Of a stretch of 18,982 nt of DNA, positions 2,061 through 16,729 are shown one piece after another. Position numbers and translations under genes: made by a program. The notes beneath the pieces were generated by a model. That model made no database searches, was not told the origin of the DNA, and worked only from the letters and a program-made list of their open reading frames with translations. Numbering within the stretch: position 1 is the first letter of the stretch; each line of letters begins with the position of its first letter. Source of the stretch: Dehalococcoidales bacterium (GTDB lineage Bacteria > Chloroflexota > Dehalococcoidia > Dehalococcoidales > UBA5760); NCBI GenBank assembly GCA_028710655.1, contig JAQTTS010000011.1, positions 1-18,982 on the forward strand, read 5' to 3'.

Positions 2061-3302
2061 TTATGCTACGGCTACAGGTTCTTTCGCCTTGTGCTTCCGC
2101 TTCGGCTTGTCCTCGGCTTCCGCTTCGGTTGCCTCTATAGGCTCGGCTTCCGTCTCGGTTGCTTCGGTTGCTTCCGCTTCCGCTTCCGGCTCGGCTTCTG
2201 TCTCCGGCTCGGTTGCCTCGGCTTCGGTGTTCGGCTTGTCTCCGGTCAGCATTGGCATGGTAACAAGCTGGTATCCGTCAACCTGAAAGAGGACTGGCGA
2301 CTTGCTATCGGTGAGCTTCAAGTCCACCATGCCGTTACAGGCTCTCAGGGCGTCTGCCAGATACTTGCCGTCAACCCTTACCTTGTTTGGCTCACCATCT
2401 ATGTCGGCTGGTATAACCGCTTGCCCCTTATCATCGGGACTTGACAGTATCACCATACCGTCATTGGTGGTGAGGTCTATCGGGTATGAATTGCTATCGG
2501 CTAACACCTTTAGCGAACCTACGGCCTTGACTGCCTCAACGGTGTCAAAGTGAATAGCGGTCTTTGTCTCAACGGGGATTAGCTTCTCATAGTCGGGGAA
2601 AGTGCCATCGGCACTCACGAAGCTATACCGAATTGCCTCGGTATCAATGAGTAACTTCATTCCGTCAAGGCTCTCACCGCTTTTCTCAAAGCTCAGATTA
2701 ACACGCCTTGCTTTACGCAGGGCGTTAGCGATGCCCCACAGGTCATCCCGCATTATCAGGGCTTGCCCTTCGCCGTCAAAGTCTATGCTCTGGACTGCCA
2801 GCCGGAAGCCGTCAGCACTTATGATGTTTAGCTTCCCCTCACCGGCTTTGAATAACACGCATTGTAAAACGGGGCGGTTATCCTCTTTTGATGTGAAGGG
2901 GAGCGTTCTGTTAAGTGCCTCGGCAAGCTCAACATTCCCGATGTTAGGCTTGACAGCGTTGTTAGGGCTTACTCTGACATCGGCGTTAGTCATAGGGGTA
3001 TTTTCGCCTATCCAAGCCATGTCCTCAAGGTAACTGGTATTGCTACCGCAAATTACTTTCAGGCGTTTACCGATGCCATGCGTCTCGCTATCTGCACCGT
3101 TAGCCGGAACGATTTTTACTACGTTGCTTCCGGCTATTGCCTTTAAGTAACCGAGTAAGCCTTTACGCCCAACAGTGAAGTCCAGCAGCATCAGCCTATC
3201 GGCTAATGCTCTGGACAAGGCGTTTACCAGTGTAGCTCTATGAGCTACAAAGCCGTTACCTGAACGCTTGCCCACAATATTCAGTTTTTCCAGTTTATTC
3301 AC
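2061..3302 (-). CDS. dnaN: DNA polymerase III beta sliding-clamp homologue with acidic C-terminal tail
   Basis: This encodes 413 residues. The clamp tethers replicative polymerase and other factors to DNA as a ring. Domain II is clear: VELAEALNRTLPFTSKEDNRP at about 124-144, then VLQCVLFK and ISADGFRLAV at about 161-170. FPDYEKLIP at 235-243 matches the FPDYxxxIP motif, and the clamp fold ends at YQLVTMPML (344-352), equivalent to the conserved MPMRL-like terminus. Residues 1-120 match the usual domain I poorly by eye. The protein then continues for 61 residues of Glu/Ala/Thr repeats (357-399) and a basic end (KPKRKHKAKEPVAVA), which is absent from typical clamps of about 370 residues. The GTG start touches the AAAAGGG SD, so the exact start is uncertain. 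The gene is followed by strong terminators. It is probably the element's own clamp. Confidence 0.9.
   Translation of the reverse strand: MNKLEKLNIVGKRSGNGFVAHRATLVNALSRALADRLMLLDFTVGRKGLLGYLKAIAGSNVVKIVPANGADSETHGIGKRLKVICGSNTSYLEDMAWIGENTPMTNADVRVSPNNAVKPNIGNVELAEALNRTLPFTSKEDNRPVLQCVLFKAGEGKLNIISADGFRLAVQSIDFDGEGQALIMRDDLWGIANALRKARRVNLSFEKSGESLDGMKLLIDTEAIRYSFVSADGTFPDYEKLIPVETKTAIHFDTVEAVKAVGSLKVLADSNSYPIDLTTNDGMVILSSPDDKGQAVIPADIDGEPNKVRVDGKYLADALRACNGMVDLKLTDSKSPVLFQVDGYQLVTMPMLTGDKPNTEAEATEPETEAEPEAEAEATEATETEAEPIEATEAEAEDKPKRKHKAKEPVAVA
2106..2234 (-). repeat. Low-complexity Glu/Ala/Thr repeat coding the clamp tail
   Basis: Degenerate in-frame repeats (units such as ACCGAAGC, GAAGCGGAAGC and GAGGCAACC on the minus strand) encode TEAEA/PEAEAE runs at about residues 357-399 of the clamp. 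The pattern suggests growth by slippage or unequal recombination. Confidence 0.7.
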
Positions 3303-6558: not shown

Positions 6559-6580
6559 TAGTCACATGAGGGTGTATACT
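6552..6580 (+). promoter_or_regulatory. Sigma-70-type promoter of the transglutaminase-like operon
   Basis: The plus strand reads TTGTCA (6552-6557), 17 bp, TATACT (6575-6580). Transcription would begin near 6587, just before the SD of the gene at 6605. Its -35 uses the same bases as the opposing promoter's -35. Confidence 0.68.
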
Positions 6581-6604
6581 TTTGCCAGATGGGAGGTACC
6601 AGCC

Positions 6605-7189
6605 ATGCCGAGTGATGCCGTATCAGTTATCGTTGGGGGGAACCAGATACACTTATACGAGCAGCTCCGGGCCAACGTCCGCTATGACGGCCAGTACCAC
6701 AACGTCAAAGACCTGGTACAGCCAGACGACCCAGAGGTAAGAGACCTTGCCCGGGTACTGGTGCAAGCAAATGACTTCATCGACGCGGCACAGGAGTTCG
6801 TCAATTCCTTTACCCTCTATGAACCGGAGGTGGGGGATTACTGGACGGAGCCCTGGGAGCTGCTGGAGGCGCAGGCTGGTGATTGCGACGACAAGGCTAT
6901 CCTGCTCTGCTCAATCCTCAGAAACTACCTGTCCCCCGACCAGGTTTATTGCGCCTTTGGCCTGTGGGCGATCGATGGGGAGACCACCGGGCACATGTGG
7001 GTTGTTACGGACGGCGAGGACGGCGAGGACCGTATTATCGAAGCCACCGCCGGCCCGGAGCGGAAGACGAGAGGGAAATATGTACTGCACGGTATCTTTA
7101 ATGATAAGTATGCCTTTTCGACCGATGTCGGTCTTCGTGAGTTCGACTTGAAGACCGTTGAGGTCGAAGAGACACCGGTAAGGAGGTAA
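6605..7189 (+). CDS. Transglutaminase-like (papain-fold) protein
   Basis: This encodes 194 residues. The ATG at 6605 has GGGAGGTACC before it. A longer frame from 6566 would begin upstream of the predicted transcription start and is rejected. The core looks like a transglutaminase/cysteine-peptidase fold: AGDCDDKAILLCSILRNYL with Cys94 as candidate nucleophile, TGHMWVV with His130, and IIEATA with Glu146 in the place usually held by Asp. The N-terminal 60 residues include VNSFTLYEPEVGDYW leading into the helix. Proteins of this fold cleave or ligate peptide bonds or isopeptides. The substrate here is unknown. No signal peptide or TM is seen, so it is probably cytoplasmic or a virion-associated processing enzyme. 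It is the first gene of a three-gene operon ending at 7857. Confidence 0.78.
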   Translation: MPSDAVSVIVGGNQIHLYEQLRANVRYDGQYHNVKDLVQPDDPEVRDLARVLVQANDFIDAAQEFVNSFTLYEPEVGDYWTEPWELLEAQAGDCDDKAILLCSILRNYLSPDQVYCAFGLWAIDGETTGHMWVVTDGEDGEDRIIEATAGPERKTRGKYVLHGIFNDKYAFSTDVGLREFDLKTVEVEETPVRR

Positions 7190-11142: not shown

Positions 11143-11267
11143 AGTAGCAAATGGAAGATGGTTATGTGCGGCCGGAGCAGTTTCTGTTCAGTGTGGTGAC
11201 CAGCGTTCTGCTGGGTATGGTTATGAATGTTGCCTCTCGGTCGCAGACAACCGAAGGGAGGCAGATA

Positions 11268-12083
11268 ATGTTTGGAATTCCCAAAACAGATATTGAGCGC
11301 CTCATGTCGCATTACGGTATCAGCGAGGAAGAGGCTGCGGAGCTGCTGGCTAGCTATTCTATCGACCTACTGCTCCCCGAGAGGGGTTCTAGGCTGGCCC
11401 CGATAGAAATCATCGGAAACACACAACAGGAGCTGGCCTCCGGGCTGATGGTAATGGAGGGTAGCATGAGCGTTGGGGAGAAAGCCCGGCTGACCTTTTG
11501 TACCGAGGGACTTCCCAGCGACGAAGACCTCGCCGCCATGTATCTGGAGATGACTGCCCTGGGGTGCCATGTTTCCTATCCTACCGCATCTGTTATCGAG
11601 GGTATCCCGACTACCGAGTTTGTCATGCAGAAAGGGTCACCGGCTTGGCCGCTGATCATTCCGTTAATTATTCCCATATTAACCATTGGATTGATCACAT
11701 TCGGCATATTTAAGCTAGAAACCATCACCAAGGCTATTATGCCGATTATACTGGTAACTGTCGGGGGTGTAATAGTTATCGCGGCATTGTTCAGGAAGCC
11801 GGCCGAGAAGTACATCGAGCGGGGTGGCAAGGTCCCGTATCTGCCCGAAACAAAGAAAAAGCAAGGGTCGGGATCTCTTGGCCGCGCTATGCCTGCGAAG
11901 GCTAAGGGGTGGGATAACTTTCTAGGCCGTGATTACAGGAAGGGTGATAAGGTGGTTTGGGTAACACAGTCGATGTTTTCGAAGGAGCTACCCCCATTTC
12001 TGAATGATATCTACGTTATCCCTGCATCCTTTGCCGAGATGGCGAAAATATACCAGTTAAAAAAAGCACTGGCCGTCAGGTAG
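11268..12083 (+). CDS. Two-TM membrane protein, zero-frame product upstream of a frameshift
   Basis: This encodes 271 residues from the ATG at 11268, supported by GGGAGG six bases upstream. A longer in-frame start at 11151 adds a hydrophobic segment (FLFSVVTSVLLGMVMNVA) but would be nearly leaderless given the promoter at 11113. The N-terminal IERLMSHYGISEEEAAELLASY forms a UBA/CUE-like helical hairpin. Two adjacent transmembrane helices follow at about 127-148 and 155-174 (PLIIPLIIPILTIGLITFGI; IMPIILVTVGGVIVIAAL), then a basic cytoplasmic-looking tail. The stop TAG at 12081-12083 lies within a stable stem after the slippery run at 12059-12065, and the -1 frame continues into the large ORF. 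No family is recognised. Membrane anchoring is the clear property. Confidence 0.78.
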   Translation: MFGIPKTDIERLMSHYGISEEEAAELLASYSIDLLLPERGSRLAPIEIIGNTQQELASGLMVMEGSMSVGEKARLTFCTEGLPSDEDLAAMYLEMTALGCHVSYPTASVIEGIPTTEFVMQKGSPAWPLIIPLIIPILTIGLITFGIFKLETITKAIMPIILVTVGGVIVIAALFRKPAEKYIERGGKVPYLPETKKKQGSGSLGRAMPAKAKGWDNFLGRDYRKGDKVVWVTQSMFSKELPPFLNDIYVIPASFAEMAKIYQLKKALAVR

Positions 12084-12107
12084 GGAAAGACCACTATCTG
12101 GCGGCTA
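12059..12107 (+). promoter_or_regulatory. Predicted programmed -1 ribosomal frameshift signal
   Basis: The zero frame reads TTA AAA AAA GCA. The heptamer A AAA AAA occupies 12059-12065. A stem follows: GCCGTCAGGTAG (12072-12083) pairs with CTATCTGGCGGC (12094-12105) over 12 pairs, including two G-U, and U-A and G-U extend it to 14. The loop is 10 nt. The spacer is 6 nt to the 12-bp stem, or 4 nt to the 14-pair form. The zero-frame TAG forms the top of the stem. The -1 frame is open from 12065 to the stop at 14821. Confidence 0.75.
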
Positions 12108-14821
12108 CTGGTATTCAGGAATCACGCATCAAGCATGACCTCGCTCACAGCATAAGAGAAGAGCATGAGGCAGCCCGTGTATACCGTGAGCGGGGGAAAT
12201 ACGCCGCCGACGCCGGGGACAAGGAAACCGCCGATCTCTATGAGCATGTCGCCGGGGAGGAAGACCATCACAAGCAGGAGTTCCAGGAGCGCGGCATGAA
12301 GCTGGGCAAACAGTATTCTACTACTGAACACTTAGCCTCTACCAGTACCAGCGGTGAGAGATATAAGTTCCAGCGACTTTTAGAGCGTTCACCGTATGAA
12401 GCCGGTGAGATAGCCGGTATGCAAATGGACACTATTCCCGAGGCGCTTGAAAACCTTCAACTTACGTTTAGCAAGATGAAAGTTAAGATATACCCTTGGC
12501 TTACGCGGGAAAATGAAGTTGATGCATATGTGGTAGATGCAAAGGGCGATTTTTCTAGAGCATTATCCCCTCAAGAGCGCGAAGAATTTGAGAAAGGAAT
12601 ACGTGATTGGCTGAGGGGCGCTGTAAGGAGTGGTCCTAGTAAGAAGATATGGCCTCAGACTAAGAAAGAAAACTGGGTCAAGATAACCAAGCGCGGCGCT
12701 AGCTCCTTCTCCGAAGGCTCTCTTATCAAGTGGGAGGAGTTCAAGGAAGATGATCGAAGGGTGAGGGAGCGTGGGGAGGAGCCGGCCTCGGTCGAGATTG
12801 TCAAAGAGCCACACCCGGGTAATGGGAATGGTGGCAAGGAAGTTCCCGCTACTATCCAGGGCGAGCCGATTCCTGAGAAATATCGCCCTTTGATACCCCT
12901 CATTGATGAGCCGCTGCCGCCCGAGAGTGATTACCTGGTGCCGGCCATTGTTCTCGAGGAAGGGGAGCGGAAGATTGACGCCGTGCTTAGGCAACTGAAG
13001 GATGGCGTCGAGGGTATTCAGAATAGTGAACAGTTCCGGTTGTTCCTTGAAACTATGGCCAAGTTCCACCAGTACTCGCTGGGTAACCAGATCCTGATTG
13101 CCTTGCAGAAGCCGGAGGCCACCCGGGTAGCCGGTTTCAATACCTGGAAAAACCTTGGCCGCTGGGTTAAGAAAGGTGCTACCGGCATCGCTATTCTGGC
13201 ACCTATAATGCCGCCCAAGCCTAAAGAGGAAAAGAAAGAGGGGGAAGAGGAAGAGACGCCACTGACGCCGGTGTACTTCAAAGTTGTACACGTCTTTGAT
13301 GTCAGCCAGACCGAGGGCAAGCCGCTTCCCGAATTTGAAGTACCAAGCCTAACCGGCGAAGCCAATGAGGAGCTGTTTACAAAGGCGTTGGCACTGGCCA
13401 AGGCCCAGGGGCTGGAAGTAGATTTTGACCCAATGCCGGCACAGGACCCGTCGGTAAAAGGATTTTACTCGGGCAAGAAAATATGGGTAAAGCCCGATGA
13501 GCCCAGGGCACAGCAGCTCAAGACGCTATTGCATGAGCTGGCCCATTACTACTCCGAGGGAGTGTTCCGTATCCCCAGGCGGGATGCGGAGACGATTGCC
13601 GAGAGTGCTGCTTTTGCCGTGGGCGCACACTTCGGTTTTGATAGTGGCGTTAGGTCATTCCCCTACGTTGCCATCTGGTCTCAAGATCCCAAAGTGCTCA
13701 AGGACAACCTTGGCTCTATTCGGAAGGTGACCAGTGTTATGCTCGAGGGGCTGGAGAAAAGCAAAGTGGAGGAAGGCAAGCTATTGCCGGCGCTGCGACC
13801 CTATGACCCGTACGAATTCGCCGAGTACGTCCTCCGCTACAACCGGTTCAGTGACGCGGAGGTTCCGATCTACAGCGGACTGGCTGGCAAGGCGCCGCTT
13901 AGGGTTCCAGACAACGTCTGGCGAGAAGTTATCGAGGCGACTGAAGGTGAATTCATCAAGCAGGGGGAAATAAACATCTTCCATATCCCAGAGAAAGAGC
14001 GGCCTACCTATATGTATGCACCTCCATTCGGTGGTTTTGGCAAGGCTGTTCTCCCGGAATGGATACCGCCTGATGTTCAGGAACTGTTGACCACCGGCAT
14101 AGGTAGCCTCGAAGCGAAGTACAAGCTGCCTTCCTCGAAAGAAGCGAACAGAACACAAGCCCAGTCCAATAGATTGGTGGATCTGGTCATCAAGGCTGAA
14201 TCAGGTGCCAGGGATGTTAATCCTCAGCTCTCTGACCCGATCTGGAATGTCTATAAACATCTTTACAACCTGATGACGGATGATGAGGCGGCTCAGTATC
14301 GCAGATTAAGGAAAGAGCCGGATACTAGTCGGCTCATGCCTCAAACAGAATCCAATGGCACTTGTTACCAGGATGCCTGGCGTTTCCTTCTTAAAGAAAA
14401 GGAAGGGCACCTGGTGCATGGCACTGTCTGGAATGGTGACAAGAGGATCGGGCATGCCTGGGTTGAGACGGATACCGGTTACATTTGGGAGCCGGAAACC
14501 AAGAAGTTCTACACCAAGCTTGGGTTCGATAATGTCGCAGCTCCGGTTGCACAGTATAGATATACTGTAACCGAGGCCTCCGTCATGGCAGCTCGCACCA
14601 AGAGCTTTGGCCCGTGGAGCGACAAAGAAGTGGCTGATTATCTGAAGAAGAAATCCCCGGCGGTCATTCTCACGAAGCCTCCAGCCCCGATCCCCAAGGA
14701 AGAGATGGAATTTATCTCCGATACCCCGGAGCTGATACCCTTCACCATCGACGATATTGGGTACCGCGACAAACTGGACAATGCTTTCGAGATGGCTATT
14801 GCCAAAGTCCAAGGGGGATAG
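12065..14821 (+). CDS. Large polyvalent protein: helical domain, ArdC N-domain, HExxH zincin, papain-like domain
   Basis: The frame is open for 918 codons. No ATG, GTG or TTG occurs before the ATG at 12296, although that stretch reads as protein (ESRIKHDLAHSIREEHEAAR ... EHVAGEEDHHKQEF). I therefore treat it as the -1 frameshift extension of the gene at 11268, giving about 1184 residues in all. Numbered from the 12296 ATG: about 243-335 is ArdC-N-like (QFRLFLETMAKFHQYSLGNQ; GFNTWKNLGRWVKKGATGIAI), a single-stranded-DNA-binding antirestriction domain. HELAH at 413-417 with Glu432/436 is a zincin metallopeptidase. Cys690 (NGTCYQDAWRFL), His720 (IGHAWVE) and Glu732 suggest a papain/transglutaminase-like domain. 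Such multi-domain proteins are termed polyvalent and are thought to enter recipients with the DNA. A separate start at 12296 is possible, because AGGAG lies 6 nt upstream. Confidence 0.85.
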   Translation, partial: STGRQVGKDHYLAATGIQESRIKHDLAHSIREEHEAARVYRERGKYAADAGDKETADLYEHVAGEEDHHKQEFQERGMKLGKQYSTTEHLASTSTSGERYKFQRLLERSPYEAGEIAGMQMDTIPEALENLQLTFSKMKVKIYPWLTRENEVDAYVVDAKGDFSRALSPQEREEFEKGIRDWLRGAVRSGPSKKIWPQTKKENWVKITKRGASSFSEGSLIKWEEFKEDDRRVRERGEEPASVEIVKEPHPGNGNGGKEVPATIQGEPIPEKYRPLIPLIDEPLPPESDYLVPAIVLEEGERKIDAVLRQLKDGVEGIQNSEQFRLFLETMAKFHQYSLGNQILIALQKPEATRVAGFNTWKNLGRWVKKGATGIAILAPIMPPKPKEEKKEGEEEETPLTPVYFKVVHVFDVSQTEGKPLPEFEVPSLTGEANEELFTKALALAKAQGLEVDFDPMPAQDPSVKGFYSGKKIWVKPDEPRAQQLKTLLHELAHYYSEGVFRIPRRDAETIAESAAFAVGAHFGFDSGVRSFPYVAIWSQDPKVLKDNLGSIRKVTSVMLEGLEKSKVEEGKLLPALRPYDPYEFAEYVLRYNRFSDAEVPIYSGLAGKAPLRVPDNVWREVIEATEGEFIKQGEINIFHIPEKERPTYMYAPPFGGFGKAVLPEWIPPDVQELLTTGIGSLEAKYKLPSSKEANRTQAQSNRLVDLVIKAESGARDVNPQLSDPIWNVYKHLYNLMTDDEAAQYRRLRKEPDTSRLMPQTESNGTCYQDAWRFLLKEKEGHLVHGTVWNGDKRIGHAWVETDTGYIWEPETKKFYTKLGFDNVAAPVAQYRYTVTEASVMAARTKSFGPWSDKEVADYLKKKSPAVILTKPPAPIPKEEMEFISDTPELIPFTIDDIGYRDKLDNAFEMAIAKVQGG
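12310..12327. repeat. Intragenic copy of the 18-bp motif (site C)
   Basis: ACAGTATT-CT-ACTACTGA matches site A at 16 of 18 positions. With the two preceding A, 18 of 19 bases are identical from 12308 and 4271. It lies inside coding sequence, so it may be accidental. Confidence 0.35.
14551..14568. repeat. Intragenic perfect dyad of the 18-bp motif (site D)
   Basis: ACAGTATA-GA-TATACTGT is a perfect 8+2+8 palindrome with the same geometry as site A. It lies inside the polyvalent ORF, 271 bases before the GHKL/zincin gene start. Confidence 0.5.
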
Positions 14822-16729
14822 ATGTCTTATATCGAGGATGAGGGAAAATCCATTGCCGATACACTCGGTGTAAGATATGACGGCCCTCAATATTATAAGG
14901 AAGAGTTCAAGTTTCATCTTTTCACTGACTCTCTCACCGGATCCACATTTGCTGGTACGTCTCTGGAGGATAGCAAAAAGCGGCTTGTGAAGATGAGAAA
15001 GCAATTTGACATTCCTCAAGAAAGGTCACCTTCAACTCACCCCCTTGTCCTCGAGCGCTTTCCCTACCCCTCTCCGGAGCAGATGGAGCTTGGGGGAGAT
15101 ATTGGTAAGATAAAAGTTGAGATTCCCCCTCCCCGCAGCAGTGGTGAGAGCGTGCTTAAAAAACGGTTAAAAGCCAAGGCAGAAGCGTCCAGCCTTACCC
15201 CTCGAAATATCACCATGGGCGATTATAAAGAGTACTGGGAGCCTTATGGCTGGAAATTACTGGCCATCGGCCCCACGTCGACCTGGAGGCAGGACTGGGG
15301 GATGTGGGAAGCTATCCGGGACATAGTCCAGAACGCCCTTGATGAAACCGAGGCGTATCAGTGGGGATATGATGATAAAGGGCTTTGGATAGCCGATCAA
15401 GGGCGCGGTGTCTCGGTTGTCGACTTCCTTCTGGGCCCGCCGAAGTTAAAGCCGGAGTATGCCCGTGGCCGCTATGGAGAGGGCATGAAGATATCTACTC
15501 TGGTGCTGGTCCGTAGTGGCTACCCGGTACATATTACCACAGTGGGGAAGGAAATCTGGATTGTTTTTCTCGAGCTGGAAATTGACGGGGTTATGAGCCA
15601 ACAGCTGAATGCCCTCTATAAAGCTGATGGATCCACCCGCGGCACCAAATTTCATATAATTGGCTACACCGGTACGGCCTATGAAAGCAGATTTGCAGTG
15701 AATATCCCGGAAGATAATATTCTCTGGAAAGGCCCCAGCCTGGTTACTGAACCGAAGCAGCGTTATAATATGCTCTATCCCTCGCACTTTCCCGTTGAAG
15801 ATCCGGAAGGCTGGCATGATAAAGGTGCCGGCGCCGGCCGCATCTTCGCCCGGGATATCTATATGCGCGATATCGGCAGTCCTTACTCTTATAACCTCTG
15901 GAGCTTCAACCTAGCCCCCGACCGGCATGCTCCTGCATCCGAAGGCGATGTCTGGATAGATATCGGCCGGCTCTGGGCCACGGTAAACGACGTCAGCCTG
16001 CTTGAGAACTTTCTGCGGATGGTTAAGGATCCTCCGGAGATCGCCAGTGAGGAAAGCCGTAATATTAACATGAACCCCTGGGATATGGGGACAGACCCTG
16101 TTTCTGGAAAGCAGTACGTTGATATTATTAAGGAAAACGCCGCAGCTTGGCAAAAGGCTTGGAATAACGTATTCCATGAAGAAGGCATTATCCGCACTGA
16201 TGAGAAGTTGGAAAATGTCGTCAAGCATCTTGGATATTATTCCGTATCGCTTAACTGGGGTGTACGGGACGCCCTTCGCCATGTGATAAAAACCGATAAA
16301 CTCATCAGGGACATTTCTCAAGAAAAACTGAGGGAAACCGAGATCGTACCGGATGAACAACTTGATACTCGCCAGTTGGCTCACATTAAGTTGGCCAGAG
16401 CCATTGTCGACAAGATATTTGGTCTTGGTTCATTGTCAGGGGTGTATCCCGCCATTATACCGCCGGCCAGCGACCGCGTTCGGACTGCCGGCATGTATGG
16501 TACGAGCAGTAATGCCATTTATATATCCTTAGAGATGCTTTATAAAGGTAGGGATACCGTTGATACTCTGATTCATGAAATGGCGCATCATCGGCAGTGG
16601 CGGCAGACTGGAGAAGCAGAGGACCTTACTGAGAGTCACGCAGCGGCTATGACCAGTATCGCCAGTGATGTGATCAGGAAACTGTCAGAGGGTGATTTCA
16701 ATGAGTATCTTAAAGAGGTTTCCTGGTAA
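14822..16729 (+). CDS. GHKL-type ATPase fused to C-terminal HExxH metalloprotease
   Basis: This encodes 635 residues. Its ATG directly follows the upstream stop, with AAGGGGG as SD. The GHKL (Hsp90/MutL/histidine-kinase) nucleotide-binding signatures appear in order: N-box WEAIRDIVQNALDE (162-175), with the Mg-coordinating Asn171; G1-box IADQGRG (190-196); and G2-like RGRYGEGMK (215-223). The following region to about 380 would complete the ATPase fold and transducer. Residues 410-560 are helical. The C-terminus carries DTLIHEMAHH (HExxH at 585-589) with Glu604 as a likely third zinc ligand, a zincin. Residues 1-60 form a small alpha/beta domain of unknown type. Combining an ATP-driven clamp with a protease suggests conformational or DNA-gated proteolysis. 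It is probably another polyvalent protein acting with the upstream one. No described family of this architecture is recalled. Confidence 0.85.
   Translation: MSYIEDEGKSIADTLGVRYDGPQYYKEEFKFHLFTDSLTGSTFAGTSLEDSKKRLVKMRKQFDIPQERSPSTHPLVLERFPYPSPEQMELGGDIGKIKVEIPPPRSSGESVLKKRLKAKAEASSLTPRNITMGDYKEYWEPYGWKLLAIGPTSTWRQDWGMWEAIRDIVQNALDETEAYQWGYDDKGLWIADQGRGVSVVDFLLGPPKLKPEYARGRYGEGMKISTLVLVRSGYPVHITTVGKEIWIVFLELEIDGVMSQQLNALYKADGSTRGTKFHIIGYTGTAYESRFAVNIPEDNILWKGPSLVTEPKQRYNMLYPSHFPVEDPEGWHDKGAGAGRIFARDIYMRDIGSPYSYNLWSFNLAPDRHAPASEGDVWIDIGRLWATVNDVSLLENFLRMVKDPPEIASEESRNINMNPWDMGTDPVSGKQYVDIIKENAAAWQKAWNNVFHEEGIIRTDEKLENVVKHLGYYSVSLNWGVRDALRHVIKTDKLIRDISQEKLRETEIVPDEQLDTRQLAHIKLARAIVDKIFGLGSLSGVYPAIIPPASDRVRTAGMYGTSSNAIYISLEMLYKGRDTVDTLIHEMAHHRQWRQTGEAEDLTESHAAAMTSIASDVIRKLSEGDFNEYLKEVSW

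What the first reader, a model, noticed from the sequence alone, without database searches (positions are those of the whole stretch)
12059..12107. Programmed -1 frameshift predicted to fuse a membrane protein to a giant ArdC/zincin polyvalent protein
The sequence shows a seven-A slippery heptamer in the correct register (TT A AAA AAA G), a 4-6 nt spacer, and a 12-14 pair stem with a 10-nt loop that encloses the zero-frame UAG. The -1 frame is exactly the frame of the ORF downstream, is open across the junction, and contains 77 codons of protein-like sequence without any ATG, GTG or TTG start. A similar layout (slippery A run plus stem) makes the dnaX frameshift product. Here it would attach ArdC, metalloprotease and papain-like domains to a two-TM anchor, and would yield both an unfused and an approximately 1184-residue fused product.
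Basis: partly seen in the sequence, partly recalled or inferred. Interest (0 to 1): 0.88.

Follow-up and report, generated by a model that had tools for sequence, protein, structure and literature searches.

The report
Conserved frameshift joins anchor to cargo
In a family of little-known genetic elements of Dehalococcoidia-type bacteria, a short RNA signal appears to make some ribosomes slip back one base, so that one gene pair yields both a plain membrane protein and a long version of it carrying interchangeable enzyme domains.

Summary
In detail: A7 in register (12059-12065), a 14-pair stem (12070-12083/12094-12107) over the zero-frame UAG, and a -1 frame open for 920 codons with no ATG/GTG/TTG for the first 77 after the slip. 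Comparison makes a programmed -1 frameshift well supported. Five further DNA loci with both parts carry a slippery heptamer, the same 5-nt register to a stem and an open -1 frame; one uses C CCA AAA and keeps the stem through a compensatory pair. Of 83 separately encoded upstream proteins (the window's own included), 74 end in KK-type and 3 in PK-type peptides. A sister clade has anchor, modules, ferritin-like domain and tail in one frame. Start codons are not conserved. The 48 nt from the slip are identical in window and L004 though the preceding 60 nt match at only 16 positions: a fixed joint between swapped modules. Likely products: a bare membrane anchor and a 1223-residue anchor-cargo fusion. 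No product has been measured; function is inferred. Corrections: three hydrophobic segments, not two; 'papain-like' has no family hit. New variant of a known kind.

The parts
11151..12083 (+). Upstream ORF (310 aa): N-terminal hydrophobic helix, small alpha/beta domain, hydrophobic hairpin, variable insert, C-terminus KKALAVR
   Evidence: 85 database relatives, 83 of them separate proteins; hydrophobic windows at residues 11-29, 168-186, 196-214; model of moderate confidence
11652..11792 (+). Codons of the hydrophobic hairpin (residues 168-214)
12059..12065 (+). Slippery heptamer A AAA AAA
   Evidence: C CCA AAA at the same place in L016
12066..12069 (+). Spacer GCAC between slip and stem
12070..12083 (+). 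5' arm of the stem, containing the zero-frame UAG (12081-12083)
12084..12093 (+). Hairpin loop (two more pairs possible inside it)
12094..12107 (+). 3' arm of the stem; in the -1 frame it encodes YLAA
12065..14821 (+). -1-frame part of the fused product, 918 residues after KK (the frame is open from 12008)
12140..12331 (+). Ferritin/rubrerythrin-like stretch, mostly in the start-less part of the -1 frame (below Pfam's cut-off in the window; above it in P0089, P0115 and L016)
   Evidence: codon-position counts in the -1 frame
12296..12298 (+). First possible start (ATG) of the downstream ORF, AGGAG at 12285-12289; not conserved
12971..13297 (+). ArdC-N domain
   Evidence: Pfam PF08401, E 7.3e-14
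13388..13552 (+). Zincin/metalloprotease-like stretch
   Evidence: phrog_87 E 5.5e-7; Peptidase_M78 below cut-off
14711..14821 (+). Conserved C-terminal tail FISDTPELIPFTIDDIGYRDKLDNAFEMAIAKVQGG and stop
   Evidence: tail pattern in 29 of 31 downstream or fused proteins (window counted twice) and in none of 83 separate upstream proteins

Best explanation
The site is a programmed -1 ribosomal frameshift signal. Ribosomes that do not shift read the upstream ORF to UAG and make a bare membrane protein; at A_AAA_AAA, helped by the hairpin 4-5 nt downstream, some slip back one base and continue into the -1 frame for 918 more residues, making a membrane-anchored fusion with a ferritin-like stretch, ArdC-N, a zincin-like stretch and a conserved C-terminal tail. 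Shown by comparison: conservation of heptamer, register, stem and open -1 frame; relatives with the same modules in one frame; no conserved start. Inferred: that the shift takes place and is ribosomal, its efficiency, that the fused form is the minor product, that the cargo faces the cytoplasm or particle interior, and that it works like a polyvalent protein (for example escorting or protecting incoming DNA).
For: Signal present in 6 of 6 loci whose DNA was read across the junction and that have a downstream partner (window, L001, L003, L004, L009, L016). L016 has C CCA AAA; of its 7 outer pairs, compared with the window's, 4 are unchanged, 2 changed on one side and 1 on both sides (C-G to G-C; the 3'-side change is synonymous, Ala GCG to GCC). 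Both heptamers fall in the class V_VV.A_AA.R that Sharma et al. list among the most efficient in E. coli (PMC4066793, passages). 74 of 83 separate upstream proteins end KK-type and 3 PK-type; the residue before KK can end in A in 74 of 74, while 14.5% of the residues upstream could not. In 73 of them the four residues after KK are 75% identical pairwise, the 20 before (less three) 14%. Differences in the start-less part of the -1 frame, by codon position, are 17/13/32, 14/13/35 and 10/5/28 in three pairs. In three contig-matched pairs the -1-frame start of the called downstream protein is codon-compatible with the zero-frame end of the upstream one right up to KK (8-9 of 8-9 residues). In-frame fused relatives: P0085, P0086, P0088-P0091, P0094. 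The tail follows another membrane-type anchor in one frame elsewhere.
Against: No protein, RNA or reporter data. The L016 stem is no more stable than shuffles (z -1.19, 53 of 500 as stable) and L003 only moderately so (z -2.69, 7 of 500). 6 of 83 upstream proteins lack a KK/PK end. A distant relative (L017, G486) has the hairpin but no downstream partner and no such signal in the bases read. A7 could also slip in transcription. ATG 12296 has an AGGAG, so an unfused downstream protein is possible; in L004 and P0096-P0098, P0100-P0102 a start is called upstream of the slip in the -1 frame. Relatives are not independent, and four of the six DNA loci share a nearly identical cassette.
Confidence: 0.86

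Rival explanations
1. Transcriptional slippage on the A run yields a mixed mRNA pool, and ordinary translation of the altered mRNAs makes the fusion.
For: AAAAAAA is underrepresented in E. coli genes in all frames, with transcriptional slippage named as a possible reason (PMC4066793, passage); the review describes Thermus dnaX as using it (PMC5009743, passage).
Against: A stem at a fixed 5-nt register is kept in 6 of 6 loci, which slippage in transcription would not need; L016 has only four A (CCCAAAA) at the same place.
Confidence: 0.1
2. Two independent proteins: the downstream one starts at its own internal start (ATG 12296 in the window) or by translational coupling.
For: AGGAG 6 nt before ATG 12296; starts called upstream of the slip in some relatives.
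Against: The first ATG/GTG/TTG lies at +237, +561, +159, -27, +78 and +54 nt from the slip in window, L001, L003, L004, L009, L016; differences in the start-less stretch fall mainly on third codon positions of the -1 frame; the AGGAG lies in the conserved coding stretch QEFQERG and the ATG is CAG in L001 and L004.
Confidence: 0.05
3. Sequencing or assembly indel, or a decaying gene.
For: Homopolymer runs are error-prone.
Against: The same frame break stands in two IMG/VR contigs, an NCBI MAG and two further genomes, one without an A run; 77 of 83 upstream proteins end alike; 459-920 open codons follow.
Confidence: 0.01

Closest known systems
E. coli dnaX -1 frameshift
   Same: A-rich heptamer in the -1 register and a stem shortly downstream (dnaX layout recalled; passages on dnaX in PMC5009743)
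   Different: In E. coli dnaX the shift makes the shorter product (recalled); here it makes the longer one. The 60 nt before the slip agree at only 15-17 positions (ungapped) among window, L001 and L004, so no shared 5' Shine-Dalgarno element is seen
Phage lambda G-GT and Ig-like extensions of phage coat or tail proteins
   Same: Frameshift in a phage-type element giving a C-terminally extended form (PMC5009743, passages)
   Different: Here a membrane protein is extended by a large modular array; no PHROGs hit of the upstream protein and no match in the phage collection
Frameshifted transposase genes of IS elements
   Same: 72% of their heptamers are A_AA.A_AA.G or A_AA.A_AA.A (PMC4066793, passage)
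   Different: The products here have no transposase hit
Polyvalent proteins (Iyer et al. 2017, PMC5512222)
   Same: ArdC-N plus a zincin in one long multi-domain protein of a mobile element (passages; hits)
   Different: ArdC-N is often at the N terminus there (passage); the main text has no 'frameshift' and no 'transmembrane'. Here a membrane anchor comes first, joined by frameshifting
Citrobacter rodentium tssM frameshift (PMC4256274)
   Same: Two length variants from an interrupted gene for a membrane-complex protein (title and start of abstract only)
   Different: Its title calls it transcriptional; it belongs to a secretion system

Membership tests
-1 programmed ribosomal frameshift signal | X_XXY_YYZ heptamer in the zero-frame register | tested here: met
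   A_AAA_AAA in five loci, C_CCA_AAA in L016
-1 programmed ribosomal frameshift signal | RNA structure a few nt downstream | tested here: met
   6 of 6 loci, first shared pair after 5 nt; 0, 0, 7, 0, 1 and 53 of 500 shuffles as stable in window, L001, L003, L004, L009, L016
-1 programmed ribosomal frameshift signal | Open, conserved -1 frame that continues the protein | tested here: met
   459-920 codons; codon-position counts; in-frame fused relatives
-1 programmed ribosomal frameshift signal | Measured frameshift product | not testable with these tools
   no proteomics or assay
Polyvalent proteins | Several domains, including ArdC-N and/or a zincin, in one polypeptide | tested here: met
   ArdC-N above cut-off, phrog_87 metallo-protease
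Polyvalent proteins | Encoded by a terminase-portal phage or a conjugative element | tested here: inconclusive
   A simple Walker A pattern matched nothing in ORFs of 120 aa or more in the pieces read of the 40-kb relative G537 (353 nt between pieces not read); no terminase profile search was run
Polyvalent proteins | Carried into the new host with the DNA | not testable with these tools
   needs particles or transfer assays

The most novel reading that the evidence does not exclude
The frameshift cassette is a 'universal joint' of a mobile element: a roughly 50-nt unit, coding in both frames and nearly invariant, at which unrelated C-terminal inserts of the anchor and unrelated cargo modules are exchanged, while the cassette sets the ratio of bare to cargo-bearing anchors. 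Relatives that fuse anchor and cargo in frame, or use a DUF192-type anchor, are other solutions to the same anchor-cargo-tail design.
Probability: 0.45. Interest if true: 0.82.

Novelty: new variant of a known kind. Interest (0 to 1): 0.72.

Why it matters
It would be a -1 frameshift outside the tail-chaperone, coat-extension and transposase settings named in the passages read, in elements linked to uncultured Dehalococcoidia-type bacteria, tying a membrane anchor to a modular, polyvalent-like cargo in a set proportion. It would mean that gene callers split one functional protein in two in this family. It also offers a natural series (two heptamers, several stems, and unshifted fused relatives) for testing how frameshift signals arise or are lost and why an element should keep a fixed anchor-to-cargo ratio.

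Tried and rejected
Five scans of IMG/VR gave two distinct contigs in all; the scan with the fused clade (A3) gave no relative. One scan of genome contigs gave one locus. tblastn found no relative of the upstream protein in the phage (E 1e-5) or plasmid (E 1e-3) collections; the 13 phage records that match the downstream protein do so only within residues 309-594, the ArdC/zincin part. Searches of genome groups gave 5 of 393, 4 of 156, 1 of 84, 9 of 393 and 1 of 400 genomes with a match.

Matches looked at and not put into the six-locus count: G230 and G264 (chance match in an unrelated protein), G435 (93-aa protein sharing only the N-terminal segment), G183 (runs off the contig), G486/L017 (distant relative with hairpin, ends ...VEKRF, next gene follows at once, no partner). 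Matches in G102, G110, G187 and two short ORFs of G001 (ferritin-like stretch only) were not looked at.

Of seven contig-length matches between upstream and downstream proteins one, P0075/P0100, is incompatible at the codon level (0 of 8 residues) and is dropped as a coincidence of length.

The model of the upstream protein (mean pLDDT 71.5, pTM 0.37) had no PDB or viral match at E 0.001 or better. A model of a possible coat protein (two rows, mean pLDDT 52.2) was too poor to search; its sequence and that of another structural candidate match no phage record. No Rfam match at E 1 in 11900-12400. The repeat finder listed no inverted repeat there, probably because of the G-U pairs.

Seven paper searches listed no paper whose title or abstract start reports frameshifting in ArdC or polyvalent proteins or in elements of this host group; passages only were read in PMC5512222, PMC4066793 and PMC5009743.

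Full report
OBSERVATION. The window holds TTA AAA AAA GCA CTG GCC GTC AGG TAG in the frame of ORF 11151-12083. The heptamer A_AAA_AAA lies at 12059-12065. The RNA after it folds into a 14-pair stem (12070-12083 with 12094-12107) that holds the UAG; the 50 nt after the slip fold at -26.5 kcal/mol, with 0 of 500 shuffles as stable and 13 of 4688 in-frame segments of the window's ORFs as stable. The -1 frame is open for 51 nt upstream and 920 codons downstream, with no ATG, GTG or TTG before 12296.

RELATED LOCI. All six have a slippery heptamer in register, a zero-frame stop 10-28 nt from its first base, an open -1 frame of 459-920 codons, and a stem whose first shared pair lies 5 nt after the heptamer. 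Five have A AAA AAA. L016 has C CCA AAA. In L016 the 3' arm still encodes YLAA, but one Ala codon reads GCC in place of GCG, and the facing base of the 5' arm differs so that C-G became G-C; two other outer pairs differ on one side and still pair, four are unchanged. Caveats: the L016 hairpin is no more stable than its shuffles (53 of 500 as stable) and that of L003 only moderately (7 of 500); L009 keeps nine outer pairs with a different inner helix. A seventh, distant relative (L017, G486) has the hairpin but no downstream partner and no such signal.

PROTEIN EVIDENCE. The upstream protein has 85 database entries including the window's own. Two are in-frame fusions; of the other 83, 74 end in KKxx[AV]..., 3 in PKxLA[VA]R (x any residue), and 6 in neither (P0054, P0058, P0069, P0074, P0083, P0084). 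PK ends would fit the C CCA AAR heptamer seen in L016. The residue before KK can end in A in all 74, while 14.5% of upstream residues could not. In 73 of them the four residues after KK are 75% identical pairwise, the 20 residues further up 14%. Seven upstream/downstream pairs share a contig length. One of these (P0075/P0100) is codon-incompatible and so a coincidence; in three (P0010/P0097, P0027/P0102, P0065/P0101) the called downstream protein runs across the slip and every residue before KK is codon-compatible with the upstream protein read one base later. In the other three the called downstream protein starts further on.

FUSED RELATIVES. P0085, P0086, P0088-P0091 and P0094 carry the same kind of N-terminal domain and hydrophobic hairpin, variable middle modules, a ferritin-like stretch and the tail in one open frame (family hits for the ferritin-like stretch in P0085, P0089, P0090 and P0094, the rest by alignment or by eye). 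P0092 and P0093 show only part. In other genomes the tail follows a different anchor in one frame: L045 has a DUF192 hit (E 8.6e-16), L046 and L048-L050 look alike by eye, and L047 runs off its contig. The tail pattern was found in 29 of 31 downstream or fused proteins (the window is there twice, as P0001 and P0095); P0089 has it by eye, P0115 does not; none of 83 separate upstream proteins has it. The natural reading is that anchor, cargo and tail form one protein and that one branch splits it by frameshifting.

NO CONSERVED START. The first ATG/GTG/TTG in the -1 frame lies at +237, +561, +159, -27, +78 and +54 nt relative to the slip in window, L001, L003, L004, L009 and L016. ATG 12296 of the window has an AGGAG at a suitable distance, so some internal initiation cannot be excluded. 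The GTG upstream of the slip in L004 overlaps a Trp codon of the zero frame, and the same follows for P0101 and P0102 from their partners. Between window, L001 and L004 the start-less part differs by codon position of the -1 frame as 17/13/32, 14/13/35 and 10/5/28, with 16, 21 and 19 synonymous against 24, 24 and 15 non-synonymous codon changes.

A FIXED JOINT. Between window and L004 the 48 nt from the slip are identical, while the 60 nt before agree at 16 positions (ungapped), near chance, since the upstream proteins have different inserts there. L003 and L009 go on into other modules without the ferritin-like stretch directly after the cassette. Thus the cassette stays while both neighbours are exchanged. 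The most novel reading rests on this; strong constraint from dual coding plus RNA structure, with no role in recombination, would look much the same.

MECHANISM. Both heptamers belong to V_VV.A_AA.R, which Sharma et al. list among the most efficient in E. coli (PMC4066793, passages); efficiency in the native host is unknown. Transcriptional slippage is less likely because L016 has only four A and because the stem register is kept. Hydrophobic windows at residues 11-29, 168-186 and 196-214, and basic residues after the hairpin, suggest that the cargo faces the cytoplasm or particle interior (inference). ArdC-N (PF08401, E 7.3e-14) and a zincin-like stretch (phrog_87, E 5.5e-7) point to polyvalent proteins, thought to travel with incoming DNA (PMC5512222, passages). 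Whether this one does is unknown. [quoted passage not shown] which class these elements are is open.

KNOWN OR NEW. -1 frameshifting in phages and IS elements is well known (PMC5009743 and PMC4066793, passages). The paper searches listed no report of frameshifting in a polyvalent or ArdC protein or in elements of this host group, within an open-licence library and judged from listings. I rate it a new variant of a known kind. On re-checking I dropped one contig pair and added the L017 locus; neither changes the odds.

Noticed in passing
P0001, P0085, P0088-P0094, P0096-P0115: A short motif [LIVFYM]P[AS]T recurs, by eye often near domain boundaries: 37 times in 29 proteins against 2.8 expected from shuffled residues. 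Relatedness inflates the count. It may mark linkers or cleavage sites.
   Followed up: partly
L045, L046, L048, L049, L050 (G238, G377, G116, G494): The same C-terminal tail ends proteins with a DUF192-type N-terminus (Pfam hit tested for L045 only) and a hydrophobic stretch, in one frame; the tail may be a targeting signal. In L048 it is diverged and followed by an extension.
   Followed up: partly
IMGVR_UViG_3300024262_000007 (L051, L006, L001, L052): 40-kb record with a 127-bp direct repeat at its ends; a simple Walker A pattern matched nothing in ORFs of 120 aa or more of the pieces read, so no packaging ATPase or terminase was evident.
   Followed up: partly
window 14822-16729: 635-aa protein with a phrog_6077 region (E 2.9e-22) and a weak SprT-like end; a relative, full or shortened, follows the cargo gene directly in L001, L003 and L004.
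   Followed up: no
window 6566-7189: Transglutaminase/CEP76-peptidase-like protein (PF24656, E 6.8e-7); similar ORFs by eye in L003 and L006.
   Followed up: no
window 2061-3302 (-): Element-encoded DNA polymerase sliding clamp (phrog_947, E 3.6e-35) with a Glu/Ala/Thr-rich C-terminal stretch.
   Followed up: no
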